Shown in pieces: positions 5,995 through 48,612 of a DNA stretch of 54,517 bases. Under the pieces are notes generated by a model that was given only the letters and a program-made list of their open reading frames with translations, was not told where the DNA came from and did not search any database. Made by a program: the position numbers and the translations under genes. The first letter of the stretch is position 1, and the number at the start of each line of letters is the position of its first letter. Source of the DNA: a virus; the IMG/VR virus record IMGVR_UViG_3300044577_000018, positions 1 through 54,517 of that record, one strand, 5' to 3'.

Positions 5995-7290
5995 ATGACA
6001 GAACCGCAAGTTATACCGGCTCTGGACCCCAACAAGGCGGCACCGACACCGGTAGAAACCAAGTTCGATATGGCGGACGTCGCCGATATCGTCAAGCAGG
6101 CTATTGAGGAACATGCGCCCGTTGCGATGAAGGAAGCGATTGCGCCTTATGTCGAAAAGTCTGCAACTCTTGAGAAGTACGCCGACGCTATCGTAGAGTT
6201 AGAGCGTAAAAAGCAAGAGCTAAATACGCCCCCTGGAATGAAGGGTTGCGCTTTTGTTCGTTACGCTCGCCTAAATGCGTTAGGCAAAGGCAACTGGGAG
6301 CTGGGCATTCGCGAAGCCAAGCAACGTAGCGCTTGGGGTCCAGACGATCCAACCGCTATAGCTGCTGAAAAGGCGCTAACGGCTTCCGATCCCAGCGCGG
6401 CCGGTAGCATCATACCTGCTGTGATGGCTGCTGAGTTCATTGAGCTCTTGCGTGGTCGTACTACCGTGCGATCTATCGCGCGTATTATTCCCATGCCTCA
6501 AGGTAATCTCACCTTGCGCAAACAGACGGCGGCCGCAACTGCCACCTACACGGGTGAATCTACAGTAGTCAACGCATCCCAGCAAACAGTGGGCGATGTT
6601 GTTCTCGCCTTCAAGAAGTTGGTCACGATCACTGCTGTATCGAATTCGCTTCTGCGGTTTTCATCTGGTGTAGCGGATGAAATGGTGCGTGACGACCTTC
6701 TAATGGTGATGGCACTCAAGGAGGACCTTGAGTTCATTACCGGAAATGCTGCTTCTAGTACTCCGCAGGGCATACTCAATCGTGTGGCGGATGCCAACAA
6801 GTTCGACGACACGGGCACGACGTACGCGCAACAAATAGCGGACTACGCCAAAGCTATTCGTTTGCTCGAAGACGCTAACATTCCGTTAACGTCTACTACC
6901 GGTTGGTGGATCATGCATCCCCAGATATTCTGGGGTATTTTTGCAACGACCGGGACAACCGAAGACGCTACGTCACCGTTCCAAGCTGGGCTTAATCTCA
7001 ATCCGCCTCAGCTTCTAGGCTACCCGGTACTGAAGACCACTCAGACCGGAGCGTCAGGTGCGTCTACCGGACGTATCTACTTTTGTCACGGCCCTACGCT
7101 ACTGATCGGTGACTCTCTGAATATGGAGGTCACGTCATTCGACGGTGCCTCTTATGTCGACTCTACCGGTACTCTCGTCTCGGGTGCGTCTCGTGACGAG
7201 TCGATCATCAGAGTCGTTAGCGAGCATGACTTCAACATGCGTCATGATCTCGGAGCCTCTATTATTGAAACCGTTACGGTGGGTTCGTAA
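5995..7290 (+). CDS. Major capsid protein (HK97 fold)
   Basis: The 431-residue product begins with a charged, helical N-arm (about 1-130), of the kind often cleaved by the protease. It continues with sequences typical of the HK97 family, such as GSIIPAVMAAEFIELLRGRT, TYTGESTVVNASQQTVGDVVL (first 20 residues characteristic) and LEFITGNAASSTPQGILN. The C-terminal part SIIRVVSEHDFNMRHDLGA is the standard domain end. A strong AAAAAGGAG ribosome site precedes the ATG, as expected for the most abundant virion protein. It follows the prohead protease. Confidence 0.92.
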   Translation: MTEPQVIPALDPNKAAPTPVETKFDMADVADIVKQAIEEHAPVAMKEAIAPYVEKSATLEKYADAIVELERKKQELNTPPGMKGCAFVRYARLNALGKGNWELGIREAKQRSAWGPDDPTAIAAEKALTASDPSAAGSIIPAVMAAEFIELLRGRTTVRSIARIIPMPQGNLTLRKQTAAATATYTGESTVVNASQQTVGDVVLAFKKLVTITAVSNSLLRFSSGVADEMVRDDLLMVMALKEDLEFITGNAASSTPQGILNRVADANKFDDTGTTYAQQIADYAKAIRLLEDANIPLTSTTGWWIMHPQIFWGIFATTGTTEDATSPFQAGLNLNPPQLLGYPVLKTTQTGASGASTGRIYFCHGPTLLIGDSLNMEVTSFDGASYVDSTGTLVSGASRDESIIRVVSEHDFNMRHDLGASIIETVTVGS

Positions 7291-30311: not shown

Positions 30312-30702
30312 GACGCTACAGGTTGCGGTGCTCTATTCTGATCTCGCTGTATGCAAGGTGGAGTGGTCGGGGAAAGAAACCCTAAAACGTGACGACGTTC
30401 TCGCAATCGCGATAGTTCACCCGAAGGAAGAAGCTCGTAGGAAGCGCCACCAGGCCGTCATCGAGCATGACTTTTACGTACTTGCATGGACGGATACCGA
30501 ATGCTACCTCGGTGGCTACGACGACGACTATTACTGGTTCAGCCTGACTGAACCATGGAAGCCGTACGGTGAAGGATTCACGCATCGGTTTCCGTTCACA
30601 CTTCCAGAGAACTCAATGCTGTTCGAAGGTGTCTTCGTTGACAAGGAAGTCTACGCACAGGCGAAGCTGATCTTCGGTGACCGTGAAGGGCCGATGTTCT
30701 AA
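30301..30702 (+). CDS. Hypothetical protein
   Basis: A 133-residue protein that overlaps the preceding gene and shares a one-base junction with the next (TAATGG). It has two apparently folded parts: VAVLYSDLAVCKVEWSG and the aromatic, acidic GGYDDDYYWFSLTEPWKPYG. It is probably part of the appendage cluster. No motif is recognised. Confidence 0.45.
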   Translation: MLSKTLQVAVLYSDLAVCKVEWSGKETLKRDDVLAIAIVHPKEEARRKRHQAVIEHDFYVLAWTDTECYLGGYDDDYYWFSLTEPWKPYGEGFTHRFPFTLPENSMLFEGVFVDKEVYAQAKLIFGDREGPMF

Positions 30703-33632
30703 TGGCATTCGTTAGTCCTGATCTTGCGGAAGGTGTCAACCTTACCAGCGCCGCTGCCGACGACGGATCGAAAAATACAGAAGCCAACCTGAACGACGGC
30801 AATACCGGCACCACAGCCTTGAACGAAATCCGGAAAGGGATGTCTGGGTACAAGATGACCCACGACATCGGCTTCGCCGTCGCGAACATCGATACTCTCA
30901 AGGTCCGTGCGTTCGACGGCGTGATGATGGCGACGGGCGACAGCCCGATCTACCCGTACTCGTCGGGCGACGTAGCAGTTGTCACTGGCAACGAGCAGAA
31001 CCTAACGATAAACGACAACGGCGCCTACGACGAGATCACTATGTCGGCGGCCTTTATCGCTGACCTTGGTGACGTCGGTACTAACCAGATCAGTATCCGC
31101 TTCTCGTATGACGGGTCTATTCGCGGTCGGTTCAATCAGATACAGCTTGAGGTGACGGAAGCCGCAAGCGGATCAGTTGGATCGTCCTCAGGGCTTGCTA
31201 CCGTTCTCGCTGTAGGACTGTCGCTATTCTCGGGAGTAGGGTCTAGTGCGGGCGCGGCTACTGTCTCAGGTGCGGGCGCGGCCATACATTCAGCTACAGG
31301 CGCTAGCGCAGGTACTACAACTGTCTTGGGTGCCGGAGCTGCTATCCACTCAGCCGTGGGGGCTAGCGCGGGTGTCGCTACCGTCTTAGGTGTAGGGCAA
31401 GCTGTAATCGGCGGCAGCGTCGGCGCTAGTGCGGGCGATTCAACTGTTCTAGGCGTTGGTGCTTCTATCCACTCTGGTGTTGCCTCAAGTGCCGGTACTT
31501 CAACCGTCCTAGGCGTCAGCGCTTCTACGAATGCGGTCACGGCTTCTAGTGCTGGGGTCGCTACTGTATCCGGGGTGGGGGTTGGCGTCCATTCGGCTAT
31601 AGCCTCGTCTGCCGGTACAACCGTTGTACTGGGTGTGGGGGCTGCTACAGGAGGTTCTATTGGCGCTAGTGCAGGCAGCTCAACTGTTGTAGGTGTAGGG
31701 GCTCCTCTTGTTTCAGTTGTTGGCGCGGCATCGGGTACGTCAACCGTTCTAGCCGTTAGCGCATCCACGAACGCGGTCACAGCTTCCAGTGCCGGTATAG
31801 CTACAGTAGTCGGGGTAGGGGTTGGTATTCACTCGACTGTAGCCTCGTCAGCTGGCGCTGCTACCGTCACAGGTCTAAGTGTTGATGAGATCGTATTGTG
31901 CTTGTCGGCCAACATAGCCGCAAGCGGTGAGAACACCACCGCACAACTCACAGCGCCATCCGGTAAAACTACCGGCGACTTTGATGCCGGTCGTATACAG
32001 GATGACGAAAACCCGGCCGATGCTGTAGACATTACCCTTGACGACTACACCGAGATGGAGTGGGCGATCAAGGGTAGCGTCACCGCCGCGCTTGCTCAGT
32101 ATGAATTCCGCGTCACGGTCAGCGGCACAGTACTAGATACCTACACCGTTACCCCTAAGCTGACCTTTACCGATGTAACCGGTTCCGTTGCTGCTAGCGC
32201 GGGTACTACAGCGGTCGTAGGCGTAGGTACTGGTATTGCGTCGGGGGTTGCGAGCTCGGCTGGCGTTGCAACTGTATCCGGGATAGGGGCCGGTGTTCAT
32301 TCAGGCGTTGGCGCTAGCGCGGGCGTAGCGACTGTTACGGGTGTTGGAGCCGCTATACATTCTGCCGTTGGCTCTGCAGCGGGCACCGCTACCGTACTAG
32401 GGGTTAGCGCCTCCACGAATGCCGTAACCGCGAGTGCAGCCGGTACGTCAACCGTATTAGCCATCAGCGCCTCTACCAACGCGGCTACGGCTTCGTCTGC
32501 TGGTGTCGCAACCGTCATCGGTGTAGGTGCGGCCACTCACTCAGCGGTAGGTGCGGCGTCAGGTACCACTACCGTCGTAGGCGTCGGCGCGGGTGTCGTG
32601 TCATCGGTTGGTAGCTCAGCCGGTACAACAACTGTAGTAGGTACTGGGGCTGCTATCCACTCAGCCGTAGCAAACGCGGCTGGCACTACGACTGTATTAG
32701 GTATTGGTCAAGCGGTAACAGCGGGATCGGTTGGCGCTAGTGCAGGCGCTTCAACCGTTCTAGGTATCGGAGCGGCTACCCACTCAGCTGTTGGATCGGC
32801 CGCCGGGACCACGGTCGCGTTAGGCGTTAGCGCCTCCACGAATGCCGTTACAGCATCTAGCGCGGGTGTCGCGACCGTCTTAGGGGTTGGGACGGGCGTA
32901 GCTTCAGGTGTCGGCTCAAGCGCAGGCGCTACAACAGTCACAGGTGTAGGCGTCGGATTAGCCTCTTCGGTGGCGGCCACCTCAGGCAGCTCTGTTGTCT
33001 TAGGAGTTGGAGCTGCTACCCACTTAGCCGCCGGCTCGAGTGCAGGCACCTCTACCGTACTAGGGGTTAGTGGAGCCGGTATTACGGCGGCTGTAGGATC
33101 GGCTGCCGGTACCTCGACTGTAGCGGGTATCGGCGCTGCGACAGCTTCTAGCACTGCTGCGGCTACGGGTACAACTGTTGTCTTAGGAGTTGGCGCTTCT
33201 ACCGCTACCGCTGTAGCATCCAGCGCTGGCGTCGCAACTGTTACGGGTGTTGGTACCGGTCTCGTTGTTTCTGTCGGCACCAGCGCAGGTGCTTCAACCA
33301 TCGTAGGTGTCGGTACTGGGGTTGCATCCAGTATCGCTTCCTCGGCAGGCGTTGCTACCGTAGCGGGTGTCGGTAGAGCTACCCACTCAGCTATTGCGAG
33401 TGCAGCCGGTACAACAACCGTAGCGGGTATCGGTGCCAGTACAGCTTCCAGCATTGCTTCCTCTGCTGGTGTCGCTACAGTGCTAGGCATTGGCACCGAT
33501 GTGTCCGCGCTTATAGGGGATGTTATCATTGCTACGGTTGTGGATCTCAACGCCACACGTACGGTAGCGGATCTAAATACCACACGTACCGTCGCAGCTC
33601 TGGTAACAAAACGTACGACGGTAAAATTGTAG
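30702..33632 (+). CDS. Large repetitive tail/appendage protein
   Basis: A 976-residue protein. Residues 1-155 form a beta-type head (including VTGNEQNLTINDNGAYDEIT). About 34 near-20-residue units follow, with consensus SSAGxxTVxGVGxxxxSxV, in two blocks of about 12 and 22 units. The blocks are separated by a distinct domain at about 393-490 (SANIAASGENTTAQLTAPSG). The C-terminus carries short TVADLNTTRT-type repeats. Low-complexity Gly/Ala/Ser/Thr/Val units like these occur in phage tail proteins and probably form a long fibre or coat. The same unit occurs twice in the 18515 protein. Confidence 0.6.
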   Translation: MAFVSPDLAEGVNLTSAAADDGSKNTEANLNDGNTGTTALNEIRKGMSGYKMTHDIGFAVANIDTLKVRAFDGVMMATGDSPIYPYSSGDVAVVTGNEQNLTINDNGAYDEITMSAAFIADLGDVGTNQISIRFSYDGSIRGRFNQIQLEVTEAASGSVGSSSGLATVLAVGLSLFSGVGSSAGAATVSGAGAAIHSATGASAGTTTVLGAGAAIHSAVGASAGVATVLGVGQAVIGGSVGASAGDSTVLGVGASIHSGVASSAGTSTVLGVSASTNAVTASSAGVATVSGVGVGVHSAIASSAGTTVVLGVGAATGGSIGASAGSSTVVGVGAPLVSVVGAASGTSTVLAVSASTNAVTASSAGIATVVGVGVGIHSTVASSAGAATVTGLSVDEIVLCLSANIAASGENTTAQLTAPSGKTTGDFDAGRIQDDENPADAVDITLDDYTEMEWAIKGSVTAALAQYEFRVTVSGTVLDTYTVTPKLTFTDVTGSVAASAGTTAVVGVGTGIASGVASSAGVATVSGIGAGVHSGVGASAGVATVTGVGAAIHSAVGSAAGTATVLGVSASTNAVTASAAGTSTVLAISASTNAATASSAGVATVIGVGAATHSAVGAASGTTTVVGVGAGVVSSVGSSAGTTTVVGTGAAIHSAVANAAGTTTVLGIGQAVTAGSVGASAGASTVLGIGAATHSAVGSAAGTTVALGVSASTNAVTASSAGVATVLGVGTGVASGVGSSAGATTVTGVGVGLASSVAATSGSSVVLGVGAATHLAAGSSAGTSTVLGVSGAGITAAVGSAAGTSTVAGIGAATASSTAAATGTTVVLGVGASTATAVASSAGVATVTGVGTGLVVSVGTSAGASTIVGVGTGVASSIASSAGVATVAGVGRATHSAIASAAGTTTVAGIGASTASSIASSAGVATVLGIGTDVSALIGDVIIATVVDLNATRTVADLNTTRTVAALVTKRTTVKL
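31177..33520 (+). repeat. Coding repeat array (about 34 units of 60 bases)
   Basis: The protein-level repeat (20 residues, 60 bases) spans 31177-31890 and 32185-33520. The units vary in codon choice, so the DNA copies are diverged while the protein pattern stays conserved. That argues against recent slippage alone and for selection on the protein. Confidence 0.7.
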
Positions 33633-41600: not shown

Positions 41601-42375
41601 GGCGACATGGCGGGCGAGACCCGGTATGGTACGGCGCGGTCGGGTGCGGTCTGGTTAGGTCAGGCAGACGGGGCACGGAGAGACGGGGCGGGGCAAGACA
41701 CGGCCAGGCGTGGAATGGCTCGGTGGAGGTGAGGTCAGGTGAGGCAGGCGGGGCCGGGCGGGGCCGGGTATGGCCCAGTCAGGCGCGATGCGGCATGGTA
41801 AGACAAGGCAGGCGCGGTGGTGGCAGGGCTCGGTACGGTCAGGTCGGGCTGGATAAGGTTCGGTGAGGCAGGCATGGCATGGTCCGGAAAGGCTAGGTAC
41901 GGCAGGCGGGGCAGGTGTGGTCTGGCCGGGCTGGGCAGCATGAGGCACGGTTCGGTGTGGCATGGCTCGGTCGGATTCGGTACGGTTGGGTACGGCTGGT
42001 GAGGCTCGGCACGGCCCGGCGAGGTTAGGCGCGGCTCGGTGAGGTCGGGTCTGGTGGGGTTGGGTACGGTTCGGCGCGGCCTGGTCGGGTCAGGTCCGGC
42101 TGGGCAGGGCAGGCGAGGTGTGGTGACGTCAGGCAAGGCATGGTTGGGTGACGCCAGACAAGGTACGACGAGGCAGACAGAGCACGGCACGATTGGGTGT
42201 GGTGAGCCAAGGTGTGGTGGGGCAAGGCAGGCAGGTCGAGGTCCGGTTAGGTCGGGCGCGATCCGGCGTGGTAGAGCAAGGCAGGCAAGGCAGGCGCGAT
42301 ATGGCGCGGTCTGGTACGACCCGGCGTGGCTCGGTAAGGTTCGGTCTGGTCTGATAGGGCATGGCAGGCAAGGCA
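41601..42375 (+). repeat. Degenerate five-base (GGYNN) array 1
   Basis: The gap after the Sak4-like gene is filled by five-base units of the form GGYNN, with occasional four-base steps such as GGCA. The first two bases are almost always G and the third is C or T, while the last two vary freely. A stretch of 23 perfect units lies at 41996-42110. No stop-free frame here has the codon pattern of the phage's genes. It ends where the ribosome site of the next small ORF begins. Confidence 0.9.
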
Positions 42376-42390
42376 AAGGAGGAAGAAAGG

Positions 42391-42502: not shown

Positions 42503-43387
42503 ATGGCAGTAGCAAAGAAGAAACCAAACGCGCAAGAAGAGATCCCAGTTCTAGAGATCACACAAGGTTGTATCGACTTCCATATAGTCGGTACCACGCC
42601 TCTGATCTGTAACTCTATGTCCGAGAAGGCTGCGCACGAGTTGCTTTTGCCCAAGGGCCGGAAGACGGACGCCGAGAAACGATCCACTTTAAAGCATAAT
42701 CCGCCTGAGGAGTACCGCGACAGCATCTACCGGGCTACCGAGAGTGATGCACCGACACGCATTACGATCTTAGCCACGTCGTTCAAGAGTGCTTTGCGCG
42801 ATGCGGCGATCGACATGCCGGATGTCAACAAGTCACAGATCGGACGCTTGACATACGTGGAGGGGGACTATCGCAACGGGAGCTATGTGCACATTTACGG
42901 TGTCCCTGAATTGCACATGTGTTTCGTACGTAGCGCCAATATGGCCCGTACTCCGGACGTCCGTACCCGTGCGATCATACCTGAATGGGCCTGCATCCTT
43001 CGCATCAAGTACACTATGCCTCTGCTACGCGAGAGATCGGTTAGTAATTTGTTGGCCGCTTCGGGACTCATTCGGGGTGTAGGAGACTGGCGCCCAGAGA
43101 AAGGTTCAGGCAGCTACGGACAATTCAAGCTTGTGCCCAAGAGCGACAGTCAATTCAAGCGGATCGTGAAAAACGGCGGACGCGAAGATCAGGATTCGGC
43201 TCTGCTGAACCCTTCTTGCTACGACGGCGAGACGGCTAAGCTACTTACGTGGTTCCATAGTGAGTTGTCGAATCGCGGCTTCGATGAAAAGGGTCGTCCT
43301 ATCGGTACCCTTGCCAAGTCGGATAGTAATGCCTTCGTAGACAACGGTGAAGATGAGACGCACGACGAGGCTCGTCTTCAGGGCTAA
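42503..43387 (+). CDS. Conserved phage protein with glycine-rich loop, possible RAMP-like fold
   Basis: The 294-residue product starts at the ATG after AAGGAG. It opens FHIVGTTPLICNSMSEKA and contains the characteristic LRDAAIDMPDVNKSQIGRLT, MARTPDVRTRAIIPEWAC and, near residue 220, GVGDWRPEKGSGSYGQFKL. I know this pattern from other phage genomes next to recombination nucleases. The glycine-rich C-terminal loop (GhGxxxxxGxGxFG) resembles that of Cas7/RAMP proteins, so an RNA- or DNA-binding fold is possible. It is coded between the two GGYNN arrays. Confidence 0.6.
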   Translation: MAVAKKKPNAQEEIPVLEITQGCIDFHIVGTTPLICNSMSEKAAHELLLPKGRKTDAEKRSTLKHNPPEEYRDSIYRATESDAPTRITILATSFKSALRDAAIDMPDVNKSQIGRLTYVEGDYRNGSYVHIYGVPELHMCFVRSANMARTPDVRTRAIIPEWACILRIKYTMPLLRERSVSNLLAASGLIRGVGDWRPEKGSGSYGQFKLVPKSDSQFKRIVKNGGREDQDSALLNPSCYDGETAKLLTWFHSELSNRGFDEKGRPIGTLAKSDSNAFVDNGEDETHDEARLQG

Positions 43388-43394
43388 CCCATTT

Positions 43395-43444
43395 TGATTC
43401 AGAGCTGCCGCTTGAAAGTTAAAAGCGGCAGCTCTGAATCTTTT
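43395..43444 (+). terminator. Strong Rho-independent terminator
   Basis: A perfect 18-bp stem, GATTCAGAGCTGCCGCTT (43395-43412) with AAGCGGCAGCTCTGAATC (43422-43439), has a nine-base loop and is followed by TTTTT (43440-43444). It ends the transcript after the 42503 gene. Confidence 0.85.
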
Positions 43445-43460: not shown

Positions 43461-43970
43461 ATGAACATGCCCAACACCAAAAGACGCGCGTTAGTAGAAA
43501 ACGCCATACGTGCACTAGAAGATGATCAAGGTTGCATAACGCCTGAGAATGTTATCGACGTCGCAAGGGATCCCAGAAGCGCTTTGCACTCAGAGTTCGA
43601 ATGGGATGACGCCAAGGCCGGACACGCCCACCGTCTGGACCAAGCTCGGGTACTCATTCGCAGTGTCAAGGTGGTCGTCACAATTGAAAGACACACGATC
43701 GCCGCTCCCTACTATGTGCGTGACCCTAATGTGCAGCCGGCCGAACAGGGCTATGTCGCGCTCGAACGCATACAAAAGGATCCACAAGGTGCGTTAGCTA
43801 TGCTGAATTACGAATTTACGCGGGCTAACGCACACTTGACGAGAGCGGAAGAGATAGCGGAGGCGGTTGGTATGAAGGCTGATTTGGCAGCTGCTATACG
43901 TAACGCTCGAGCTGCTAGCAAGAAGATCGAGAAGACGGTTAAGCGTTTGAAGGACAAGGGCGAAGAGTGA
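43461..43970 (+). CDS. Hypothetical helical protein
   Basis: A 169-residue mainly helical protein, RALVENAIRALEDDQGCITP at the start, with a beta-containing centre (VKVVVTIERHTIAAPYYVRD) and a long C-terminal coiled coil (ARAASKKIEKTVKRLKDK). It is preceded by CAGGAGG and lies between the terminator and array 2. No family is recognised. Confidence 0.5.
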   Translation: MNMPNTKRRALVENAIRALEDDQGCITPENVIDVARDPRSALHSEFEWDDAKAGHAHRLDQARVLIRSVKVVVTIERHTIAAPYYVRDPNVQPAEQGYVALERIQKDPQGALAMLNYEFTRANAHLTRAEEIAEAVGMKADLAAAIRNARAASKKIEKTVKRLKDKGEE

Positions 43971-44530
43971 CGGCAGGGTTAGATGCGGCCCGGTTCGGTC
44001 GGGCGCGGCTTGGCGGGTATGGCGCGGCAGGGCGAGGTGAGGTTCAGTCTGGTGAGGCTGGGCGAGGCGGGGTGAGGTATGGTCTGGTAAGGCAGGTGCG
44101 GCCGGGTTAGGTCTGGTCGGGCGAGATCAGGCGAGATGTGGCTTGGTCTGGTGAGGCAGGCAAAGGCAAGGCGCGGTACGGCTTGGTGGGGTCGAGTGAG
44201 GCTTGACTCGGCAGTCGGGGTCCGGCCCGGTTTGGCGCGGCAAGGTTAGGTAAGGCAGGTACGGCCCGACGGGGCTTGGTACGATAGGGTTGGGCGAGGT
44301 TCGGTAAGGCGTGGCAGGTGCGGTAGGTTCGGCTGGGTATAGTCTGGTTGGTCAGGTTCGGTAGGGTATGGTGCGGTCGGGTCCGGCGTGGCAGGCGAGA
44401 CACGGACTGGCCAGGTGAGGCGAGGCTGGGTTGGGCCGGGCGTGGTTTGGTACGGCAGACGAGGTTAGGTCAGGTAGGGCACGGTATTGTATGACTCGGT
44501 TCGGTTCGGTGAGGCAGGCGGGACTCGGCT
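43971..44530 (+). repeat. Degenerate five-base (GGYNN) array 2
   Basis: A second tract of the same GGYNN five-base periodicity begins at the stop of the 43461 gene and runs to just before the ERCC4 nuclease. Like array 1 it is G-rich, with variable last two bases and some slips of phase. Units such as GGTGA, GGCTG, GGCGA, GGCGG are read in the line 44041-44100. Confidence 0.88.
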
Positions 44531-44561
44531 TAGATCGCGGGAGTAGGGGCAGAATGGTAAA

Positions 44562-45305
44562 GTGCTGATAGATGACCGTGCCGGCTCCCGTGATCTGATA
44601 GGCTACTCGCCCCTTACCTCAACTTCCGAACTCACTCGCCTGGACTCTGGCGATGCCCTTATAACCGGCAACGGTCCTAACGATTCGGTTCTACTCATAG
44701 GCGTCGAGCTGAAAACCATATCCGATCTACTCTCCTCCACCGCAACCGGACGCCTACAAGCAACCCAGCTCCCGGCTATGCTCAAGCACTACGATATCTC
44801 CTACCTTCTGTACTACGGTCATTACCGATCGGGGCGCAAGGGCGAGCTACAGACTTACCGCTACACCAAACGACGCAAGCGTTACGAGTGGCGATCCATA
44901 CCCATTAGCCGATCGCGTTTGATACCGTACTCGTATCTCGACAGCTTCCTACTGACTCTGAGCGCTGTAGGCGTACGCTTGAAGCACGTAGAGTCCATAA
45001 CCCATGCGGCTCTATGGCTTGGCATTCTCGAGAAGTGGTGGTCGAAGCCGTGGGACAAGCACAGGGCGCTACATACGTTTGACAACTCGAGTACGATAAG
45101 CCTTTTGCCGGGCTTAGATCCGGACGTGCTACAGCGCGCGCGGGTGGCCCAACAGTTGCCGGGAGTAGGCTTCGAGCGCGCGGTAGCTGCGGCAAGACAC
45201 TTCTCAAGCATACGAGACATGATGAATGCTACAGCCGAGCAGTGGGAAGAGATAGAGGGGATCGGTAAGGTGGTAGCGAAGGCGGTTGAAAGAGCTATTA
45301 GATGA
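44562..45305 (+). CDS. ERCC4-type nuclease with helix-hairpin-helix
   Basis: The 247-residue product opens with IDDRAGSRDLI and includes VELKTISDLLSS with TGRLQATQLPAM. These match the ERCC4/XPF-like nuclease core (D...E-x-K...SDL, Q). The C-terminal part (VAQQLPGVGFERAVAAARHF and EIEGIGKVVAKAVERAI) is a tandem helix-hairpin-helix that binds branched DNA. It probably processes recombination intermediates. The GTG start lacks a strong ribosome site, so the true start is uncertain. Confidence 0.78.
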   Translation: MLIDDRAGSRDLIGYSPLTSTSELTRLDSGDALITGNGPNDSVLLIGVELKTISDLLSSTATGRLQATQLPAMLKHYDISYLLYYGHYRSGRKGELQTYRYTKRRKRYEWRSIPISRSRLIPYSYLDSFLLTLSAVGVRLKHVESITHAALWLGILEKWWSKPWDKHRALHTFDNSSTISLLPGLDPDVLQRARVAQQLPGVGFERAVAAARHFSSIRDMMNATAEQWEEIEGIGKVVAKAVERAIR

Positions 45306-45927: not shown

Positions 45928-48612
45928 GTGAAAGTGACAGCCGACACCCGCACACGCGATCGTGACGCGCACCTTGAACACGCTATCGAAGTACATGGGC
46001 GCGGCACTTCCCCGAACCGGGTCATGATCGTAGGCGAGCGCCCCGGACGCGAGGAAGTCGAGCAAGGCCGCCCCTTTGTAGGCCCATCCGGCAAAGCCCA
46101 AGAGCACTACCTACGCCTACACGGCTACTCATCTCATCAAGCGTACGTTACTAATCTTTGCAAGTCCTACGATGAGCACAACCTAGATCCCAACCCTGAA
46201 GACGTTGAGTACTGGTCGGCTACCTTGCAGCGGGAGGTGGACGATTGCAAGCCGGATATCATACTCACGATCGGCGCATACGCTACCCGCTGGTTTCTAG
46301 GTAAGCACGTCTACATGGCTGACGTACACGGAATACCGCATAAGTCGCCGAGAGCATCCAAGGCGATCGTTATGCCGTGCTTCCACCCAGCCGGCGGCTT
46401 CTACGACTCGAGCGCTAGGACCTTGATAGCGTGGGACTATGCGCAAGCGGTAGCGGCTATTAAAGGGCGGGTGGCGGAGCCGGCGGTTGATGAGTACGTC
46501 GGACGTGAGAAATACTTGGATGTCACGGGCGAGCAGTTGGCCGCCATAACTCTAGAGCGCTTTGGATCAAGCGACGTGCGGGCTCTCGGTCCGGTACCCT
46601 CGAAGTATCGTATCCCGTACTCCCTAGCTGTAGATACCGAGGGAACGCCAAGCAACCCGTGGTCCATTCAGGTGTCCGTCTACGCAGGTACCGGCTACGT
46701 CCTTCGCTGTACGCAACCCGACTTTGCAACCGGTATCCAAGCTCTACAACGTGTAGCCGACTCGGGCACCACCATTGCGATCCATAACGGCATGTACGAC
46801 CTAGAAATGTGTCGCGTCATGGGACTCGATCTATATGACGCGCACCTATGGGATTCCATGTACGCGGCTTACGTCTTACGCGTCGAGCCCCAAGGTCTAA
46901 AACCGCTAGCCTACCGTTGGTGTGGTATGGAGATGAAGTCTTATCAGGACGTAGTAGGTGACGTAGGACTAGAAAAGCAGATCGACTACCTGGTAGCTGT
47001 GTCGGATCTAGATACCCCGGACCCGGAGCCCCGCATCATCCAGGATAACGACGGCACGGCTAGACTCTACAAACCCCAACCGCTGCGCCGTAGGGCTGAA
47101 TCAATACTCGTCGACTACTACAGCGAGAAGCTCGATAAGGACGGCAACCGTACAGACCCTTACAAGCGGTGGACGAAGCAAACGCCGCGCGACCTCCGCG
47201 AGCCTGCGGAAGACATACTGGGTCCCATGCCCGAAGGTACACTAGGCGACTTACCTCTTGAGGACGCCGTACGCTACGCAGCCCGCGACCCCGACGCTAC
47301 CTTACGTCTCATGCGCGCGTTAGTACCTGCACTAGAAACGCATGATCTTACCGATCTCCATCGCGACGGCATGGACGTGCTACCCGTTTTCGAGGAAATG
47401 CAATCGAATGGCATACCCGCGCGTAAGACGCACTTCGAGGATCTATCCGAGCACGTACGCACGGAAATGGACAAGCGTCAAGTACACATAGCGGTTAAGT
47501 ACTACGAAAACCGCCCCTTCAACCCTGGGAGCCCTAAAGACGTCGCAACCTTATTACGTCGTCGCGGTCTCGTTCCCGAGAAGCATACTCCCACGGGTAA
47601 GATCTCAACCGGTAAAGAGTCAATAGAGCACTTCCGTTTCACCGACGACGCCATTAAAAACGTGATCGAATGGCGCGAATTGCAGAAGGTGGATACCGGC
47701 TTTTGTCGTCCTTTGATAGAGACCTTTCCCCTTGGCGTCGATCATCACCCGGTACGCACCAAGATCCTAACGACTCGTACCACGGCGCGTCGGATAGCTG
47801 CCAAGGGTATCAATTTTTTAGCTATCCCTATCCGACACGAACTAGGTAAGCGGCTGCGTAACGGCTTTGAAGCGGACGAGGGCTGTGTTTTCGGTGCATG
47901 GGATCTGAGTCAGATCGAGATGCGCTACACTGCTCACGTCTCGCGCGATCCGCTACTCGTTAAGCTGTTCCGCGACGGCCGCGACATTCACGCCGAAACC
48001 GCTGCCTCTGTATTCGGTATCCCTCTAGCCGACGTCGATGAGCTCGAGCACCGCTACCCATCCAAGCGTGCGGGGTTCGGCATCCTTTACGGCATTCAAG
48101 GGTACGGGTTGCTAGATCAGCTACGCATGTTTGGTTGCAAGGGGTGGACTGTCGACAAGTGCGACGAGCTCATAGCTGAATGGCTCAAGCTCTATAAGGG
48201 CGTTCCTGCGTACAGTGAGCTGTGTGTCAACGAAGCGCGCGAGAGTGGTGTGGTTCGAGATTGCTGGGGTATGCCTCGGTACGTACCTGAGATATGGTCG
48301 GACGACTCGTATACACGGGCAGAGGCGGAGCGCTTCATTATGTCGCACAAGGTCCAAGGCGGGGCACAAGGCATGATCCAAAAGTCCATGGCTTGGCTCA
48401 AACCCTACGTACGGTCTCTTAGGGCTGCGCATGTGCGCGTTGAGTGGTTACTACAGATACACGACGAGCTGATGTTTATGTTTGCCGAGCACTTGTGGGA
48501 AGTAATGGATCCGCTTGTTACTGAAGCGCTAACCAAGCACTCGCTTGAGCTGATCGTACCTGTAGAAGCTAAAGGCGGGATGGCTAAAAGGTGGGGCGGG
48601 TTGAAAGGATGA
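45928..48612 (+). CDS. Uracil-DNA glycosylase-like domain fused to family A DNA polymerase
   Basis: The 894-residue protein has three parts. An N-terminal family 4 UDG-like domain (about 25-180) shows VMIVGERPGREEVEQGRPF and later CFHPAG. A 3'-5' exonuclease follows with AVDTEGTP and HNGMYDLEMCR. The family A polymerase has motif A WDLSQIEMRY (about 656-665), motif B KRAGFGILYG (about 713-722) and motif C QIHDELMF (about 843-850). All catalytic carboxylates are visible. It is the replicative polymerase of the phage. Start choice between GTG at 45928 and 45934 is open. Confidence 0.85.
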   Translation: MKVTADTRTRDRDAHLEHAIEVHGRGTSPNRVMIVGERPGREEVEQGRPFVGPSGKAQEHYLRLHGYSSHQAYVTNLCKSYDEHNLDPNPEDVEYWSATLQREVDDCKPDIILTIGAYATRWFLGKHVYMADVHGIPHKSPRASKAIVMPCFHPAGGFYDSSARTLIAWDYAQAVAAIKGRVAEPAVDEYVGREKYLDVTGEQLAAITLERFGSSDVRALGPVPSKYRIPYSLAVDTEGTPSNPWSIQVSVYAGTGYVLRCTQPDFATGIQALQRVADSGTTIAIHNGMYDLEMCRVMGLDLYDAHLWDSMYAAYVLRVEPQGLKPLAYRWCGMEMKSYQDVVGDVGLEKQIDYLVAVSDLDTPDPEPRIIQDNDGTARLYKPQPLRRRAESILVDYYSEKLDKDGNRTDPYKRWTKQTPRDLREPAEDILGPMPEGTLGDLPLEDAVRYAARDPDATLRLMRALVPALETHDLTDLHRDGMDVLPVFEEMQSNGIPARKTHFEDLSEHVRTEMDKRQVHIAVKYYENRPFNPGSPKDVATLLRRRGLVPEKHTPTGKISTGKESIEHFRFTDDAIKNVIEWRELQKVDTGFCRPLIETFPLGVDHHPVRTKILTTRTTARRIAAKGINFLAIPIRHELGKRLRNGFEADEGCVFGAWDLSQIEMRYTAHVSRDPLLVKLFRDGRDIHAETAASVFGIPLADVDELEHRYPSKRAGFGILYGIQGYGLLDQLRMFGCKGWTVDKCDELIAEWLKLYKGVPAYSELCVNEARESGVVRDCWGMPRYVPEIWSDDSYTRAEAERFIMSHKVQGGAQGMIQKSMAWLKPYVRSLRAAHVRVEWLLQIHDELMFMFAEHLWEVMDPLVTEALTKHSLELIVPVEAKGGMAKRWGGLKG

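What the first reader, a model, noticed from the sequence alone, without database searches (positions are those of the whole stretch)
41601..42375. A 775-base degenerate GGYNN array in the recombination module
Between the Sak4-like gene and the next coding block the DNA is built almost wholly of five-base units in which the first two bases are G, the third a pyrimidine and the other two variable. Phase slips by single four-base steps, often at GGCAGGY. The last two positions look saturated, while GGY is kept, which is not expected for a recent slippage repeat. I know of no named repeat class with this design. A role in replication, recombination, RNA binding or packaging is possible.
Basis: partly seen in the sequence, partly recalled or inferred. 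Interest (0 to 1): 0.9.

Follow-up and report, generated by a model that had tools for sequence, protein, structure and literature searches.

The report
Phage VIPR guide-RNA arrays beside vipr
The strange GGYNN stretch is one of two long arrays of guide RNAs belonging to VIPR, a recently reported RNA-guided DNA-recognition system of phages related to CRISPR, and its four-base slips seem to mark where one guide ends and the next begins.

Summary
Window 41609-42376 holds about 156 GGYNN units (lag-5 identity 0.52 against 0.317±0.015 in shuffles). Between them are two genes. The first (42503-43387) encodes a RAMP/Cas7-fold protein homologous to the solved "SUSP1 Vipr protein" (profile E=2.3e-40; the 50 best fold matches shown are CRISPR RAMP proteins). 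The second (43461-43970) encodes a recurrent small neighbour. Vipr occurs in 66 of 77 viral loci with good arrays. All four relatives found through this Vipr alone also carry arrays. What I add: the 4-nt units (mostly GGCA) recur every 8-16 units in many phages, close to the reported guide length. In close relatives a GGCA-bounded block is shared while its neighbours differ. Other phages use other short separators. So these are probably tandem guide arrays punctuated by GGCA. No natural target was found for the four window guides scanned. Expression and targeting were not testable here.

The parts
41609..42376 (+). Array 1: about 156 GGYNN units with 15 four-base units (13 GGCA); candidate vrRNA guide array
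42503..43387 (+). vipr: 294-aa RAMP/Cas7-fold protein, phrog_4652; glycine-rich loop GVGDWRPEKGSGSYGQF; extra C-terminal helices and tail
   Evidence: profile match to PDB 36pp SUSP1 Vipr E=2.3e-40; AlphaFold pLDDT 89.2; fold matches to CRISPR RAMP proteins; phrog_4652
43396..43440 (+). Perfect 18-bp stem-loop followed by TTTT between vipr and the next gene; terminator-like
   Evidence: -34.9 kcal/mol, z=-8.5; sequence
43461..43970 (+). Probable vap (vipr-accessory) gene, 169 aa, phrog_15946
   Evidence: family found in over 30 loci beside vipr and arrays; AlphaFold pLDDT 92.7; weak matches, several of them winged-helix DNA-binding proteins
43972..44531 (+). Array 2: 114 GGYNN units with 11 four-base units (8 GGCA); candidate vrRNA guide array
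   Evidence: regular GGCA spacing 13,11,9,12,16,13,12
44525..44605 (+). Strong stem-loop directly after array 2, overlapping the annotated start of the ERCC4 gene (44562); possible RNA tail or terminator
   Evidence: -34.8 kcal/mol, z=-3.65

Best explanation
The window carries a VIPR system: array 1 - vipr - vap - array 2, all on one strand. The arrays are transcribed into vrRNAs. Copies of the RAMP-fold Vipr protein sit along the RNA, probably one per five bases, holding each GGY. The NN pair of each unit is presented to base-pair with DNA, skipping one target base per unit. Bound sites, probably in competing phages, prophages or satellites, are repressed. Here the guides do not each carry a structured tail as in SUSP1; they are strings of roughly twenty guides of about 9-16 units, with the four-base unit GGCA at the joints. 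Shown here: the arrays, the Vipr homologue and its predicted fold, the constant association, the regular spacing of GGCA, and a shared GGCA-bounded block between relatives. Taken from the preprint: RNA expression, binding and the skip rule in SUSP1 and P. fulva systems. Inferred: that this phage's arrays work the same way, and that GGCA marks guide ends.
For: Design identical to the published vrRNA consensus. Vipr homology excluding Felix-type rows, E=2.3e-40, and RAMP fold. Vipr in 66 of 77 viral loci with good arrays, on the array's strand. Reverse test: Vipr-only searches gave loci with arrays in 4 of 4 and 9 of 10, the tenth cut at its edge. GGCA-type gaps: 62% at 9-13 units against 18% for random placement, n=219. 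A GGCA-bounded block shared by L403-L406 next to unrelated blocks. Other separators at similar intervals in L017 and L089.
Against: No RNA data for this phage. No natural target found for four window guides. The skip rule was not significantly supported in fetched DNA (two independent matches with at most one mismatch at skip 1, one at skip 3, about 0.9 expected). GGCA spacing in array 1 itself is not regular (one 40-unit stretch, several doublets). No tail between guides.
Confidence: 0.93

Rival explanations
1. The arrays are Vipr-bound RNA but in this lineage serve as decoys or regulators of Vipr rather than as DNA guides.
For: No target found for the window guides scanned; mycobacteriophage Gaia carries two arrays without any vipr gene.
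Against: NN is hypervariable and guide content is not shared between phages even where Vipr is well conserved, which suits changing targets better than a decoy; reprogrammable targeting shown in two systems.
Confidence: 0.04
2. A DNA element (replication origin by R-loop, G-quadruplex tract, recombination or packaging signal) read as DNA rather than RNA.
For: Strong G skew; location in a replication/recombination module.
Against: Constant partner is a RAMP-fold protein, not replication genes; strict five-base register, Y at position 3 and one preferred four-base unit are not needed for such elements; one genome carries several arrays.
Confidence: 0.02
3. A tandem-repeat protein-coding region or neutral microsatellite.
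For: Forward ORFs of 91 and 127 aa and reverse ORFs up to 266 aa overlap array 1; a phage record annotates an ORF over such an array (UmaThurman gene 40).
Against: Period five with four-base slips breaks every frame; NN entropy is near maximal and adjacent units share NN bases at chance level; microsatellites among bacterial hits look different.
Confidence: 0.01

Closest known systems
VIPR systems (Vipr + vrRNA), preprint PMC13142463, 2026; PDB 36pp SUSP1 Vipr
   Same: RAMP-fold Vipr protein; alternating GGY/NN arrays in flanking intergenic DNA; small accessory gene; phage genome
   Different: Here about 270 units in two long arrays with only GGCA between presumed guides and no tail after each; accessory protein not alignable to that of a SUSP1-like phage.
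Class 1 CRISPR effectors (Csm3/Cas7 backbone on crRNA)
   Same: RAMP fold and glycine-rich loop; protein thought to oligomerise along a guide RNA
   Different: No constant repeats and contiguous spacers, no cas genes; gapped dinucleotide code; period five, not six (last point from general knowledge)
TRAP-binding RNA ((G/U)AG triplets spaced by two bases), from memory
   Same: Triplet plus two free bases, period five, read by an oligomeric protein
   Different: Different triplet, far more units, hypervariable NN thought to carry target information, RAMP partner

Membership tests
VIPR | Vipr protein: single RAMP/RRM fold with glycine-rich loop | tested here: met
   Profile E=2.3e-40 to SUSP1 Vipr; fold search gives CRISPR RAMP proteins; loop conserved in the alignment
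VIPR | vrRNA genes of alternating GGY and hypervariable NN next to vipr | tested here: met
   Two arrays flanking vipr/vap; association in 66 of 77 loci
VIPR | Small accessory (vap) gene in the locus | tested here: met
   169-aa family recurrent beside vipr in over 30 loci; that it is one of vap1-6 was not testable
VIPR | Arrays transcribed and RNA bound by Vipr | not testable with these tools
   Needs RNA sequencing and pull-down
VIPR | NN dinucleotides match DNA targets with a 1-nt skip | tested here: inconclusive
   At most one mismatch in 20: two independent matches at skip 1, 0 at skips 0 and 2, 1 at skip 3, about 0.9 expected; no window target found
VIPR type II (SUSP1-like) | Structured 3' tail (pseudoknot in the SUSP1 clade) after each GGY/NN tract | tested here: not met
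   Blocks abut with only GGCA between them; a stem-loop only after array 2
VIPR type II (SUSP1-like) | vap1 homologue | tested here: not met
   hhalign of the window accessory family against the vap-position gene of a SUSP1-like phage: probability 0.6%
CRISPR array | Identical repeats separated by unique contiguous spacers, with cas genes | tested here: not met
   Only GGY conserved, period five; no cas operon among the neighbouring genes examined
Known Rfam RNA families | Match at gathering score | tested here: not met
   No match in the window or five phage loci

The most novel reading that the evidence does not exclude
A compact VIPR architecture in which many guides are stored head to tail in one array and separated only by a four-base unit (GGCA, or other short constant separators such as CGCA, GGCGTTCAR or GGCTAATG in other phages) that acts as guide boundary, with blocks gained, lost and moved as units like CRISPR spacers. 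The preprint's main text does not describe such punctuation, but its closed supplement (staggered arrays) might.
Probability: 0.5. Interest if true: 0.75.

Novelty: new member of a known kind. Interest (0 to 1): 0.62.

Why it matters
VIPR was reported only in April 2026 and changes ideas on how RNA can guide proteins to DNA and on where CRISPR came from. This window shows a phage storing roughly twenty guides in two arrays. The GGCA punctuation gives a candidate rule for cutting such arrays into guides, which is needed before anyone can predict what they target. Relatives suggest that guides turn over as blocks, so how phages acquire new guides becomes a question that sequence comparison can address.

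Tried and rejected
R-loop/G-quadruplex origin, TRAP-like regulation, Chi-like sites, Rho sites and coding repeats were considered and dropped once vipr proved to be the constant neighbour. Rfam search: nothing. Early literature searches on pentamer repeats found nothing useful; the Felix O1 genome paper lists direct repeats, and the passages found do not mention these arrays. The bacterial-genome pattern scan was mostly microsatellites. Target searches for four window guides failed: 8-unit seeds matched 10, 1, 10 and over 120 contigs without extension through the whole guide; the large set is almost all one tail-fibre-like motif (SDFDTGVR, wobble phase), and a 10-unit extension of it had no match. 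The skip-1 counts include loci fetched by that very pattern and are circular, so only the L011 and L031 matches were counted. Shared guides between arrays of different phages: essentially none beyond contigs of the same phage. The A1 profile hit to SUSP1 Vipr was inflated by Felix-type rows and was repeated without them.

Full report
What is there. Lag-5 identity is 0.521 against 0.317±0.015 in shuffles. Position 2 departs from G mostly to A; the NN pairs are close to uniform. Four-base units occur, 13 of 15 being GGCA. A second array with the same properties, 43972-44531, lies 1.6 kb downstream on the same strand. The two arrays frame two genes, 42503-43387 and 43461-43970.

How common it is. 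Most of these hold degenerate arrays of the same kind, whereas bacterial genome hits were mostly simple microsatellites or GC-rich DNA. Cultured phages have them too: Felix-type coliphages (L243, L244), Mycobacterium phages Quico and Gaia, and Gordonia phage UmaThurman.

What goes with it. Clustering the neighbouring proteins showed one family next to the arrays. A profile found it in 66 of 77 viral loci with good arrays, and among bacterial hits only in four loci with degenerate or short arrays beside it. It is phrog_4652. A profile without any Felix-type sequence matches the solved SUSP1 Vipr protein, 36pp, at 2.3e-40. The AlphaFold model (pLDDT 89) resembles CRISPR Csm3/Cas7-type RAMP proteins: the 50 matches shown are chains of CRISPR RAMP complexes. 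In the reverse direction, the window's own Vipr fetched four further contigs, each with arrays around the gene. Another Vipr fetched ten loci, nine with arrays and the tenth cut at its edge.

What it is. The preprint PMC13142463 describes exactly this: VIPR, a phage-encoded RAMP protein (Vipr) with vrRNAs of alternating GGY and NN, where the NN pairs read double-stranded DNA with one skipped base per unit, repressing competing phages and satellites. The window is therefore a member of a kind first reported in April 2026. The second gene (169 aa) is a recurrent neighbour, probably an accessory vap gene; its model is confident (92.7), but fold matches are weak, with several winged-helix DNA-binding proteins among them. 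It is not alignable to the equivalent gene of a SUSP1-like phage, and the window lacks a tail after each guide, so it does not look like the SUSP1 type.

What is added here. (1) The four-base units are not random slips. Pooled over 30 arrays with at least four of them, 62% of 219 gaps are 9-13 units against 18% for random placement, with a peak at 10-11; the preprint gives 9-16 units per vrRNA. Pooled over viral arrays the unit is GGCA 220 times against 50 for GGCG, GGCT and GGCC together. In the window, array 2 shows the regularity (p=0.001) and array 1 does not, because of one 40-unit stretch and several doublets. (2) Other phages use other short constant separators at similar intervals: GGCGTTCAR in L017, GGCTAATG in L089. 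(3) In six contigs whose Vipr proteins are 87-100% identical to the query, arrays sit in the same places but guides differ, except for one GGCA-bounded block shared by L403-L406, and a related block that lies in different arrays in L407 and L408. These facts favour GGCA as guide boundary and blocks as units of turnover. That is an inference; RNA ends would settle it.

What could not be shown. Ten-unit windows of all arrays were compared with all fetched DNA under skips of 0-3. With at most one mismatch in 20 there were two independent matches at skip 1, none at 0 or 2, and one at 3, with about 0.9 expected. One of them, from L011 to L119, runs exactly between two GGCA units and has the skipped base at the wobble position of a long reading frame: encouraging, not proof. 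Four window guides were searched in 2.9 million viral contigs without a convincing target. Pooled NN composition resembles codon positions 1 and 2 of the window's genes, as expected if the skipped base is the wobble base, but composition alone is weak evidence.

Verdict. Observation confirmed and extended. Interpretation partly right. A new member of a known, very recent kind, with a probable punctuation rule that may be new.

Noticed in passing
L245 and L402 (Mycobacterium phage Gaia, NC_026590.1, about 6543-6616 and 42980-43045, minus strand): Two short GGY arrays, each followed by a strong terminator-like hairpin; the first is antisense to the capsid/head-tail genes and has a -10-like TACACT upstream. 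No phrog_4652 (vipr) match anywhere in the genome: orphan vrRNA-like RNAs that might use or jam another phage's Vipr.
   Followed up: partly
L017 1986-2353; L089 4600-5060: Arrays punctuated by other constant separators (GGCGTTCAR; GGTAAGGCTAATG) every 6-13 units.
   Followed up: partly
L403, L405, L406, L408 downstream arrays: A conserved insert GGAACCTGGGCACGTTCGAAAACTGCCCA between guides could form an H-type pseudoknot, like the tail described for SUSP1 vrRNAs.
   Followed up: partly
L015, L049: Arrays of 140 to over 300 units with almost no four-base units or other visible separators, so guide boundaries there are unclear.
   Followed up: no
window 45928-48612: Family-A DNA polymerase with an N-terminal uracil-DNA-glycosylase-like domain and a 3'-5' exonuclease domain.
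   Followed up: no
window 44562-45305: ERCC4-HhH nuclease-like gene directly after array 2; its annotated GTG start lies inside a strong stem-loop, so the true start may be further down.
   Followed up: no
window 30702-33632: 976-aa protein in the tail region built of degenerate repeats of the type SSAGVATVxGVG.
   Followed up: no
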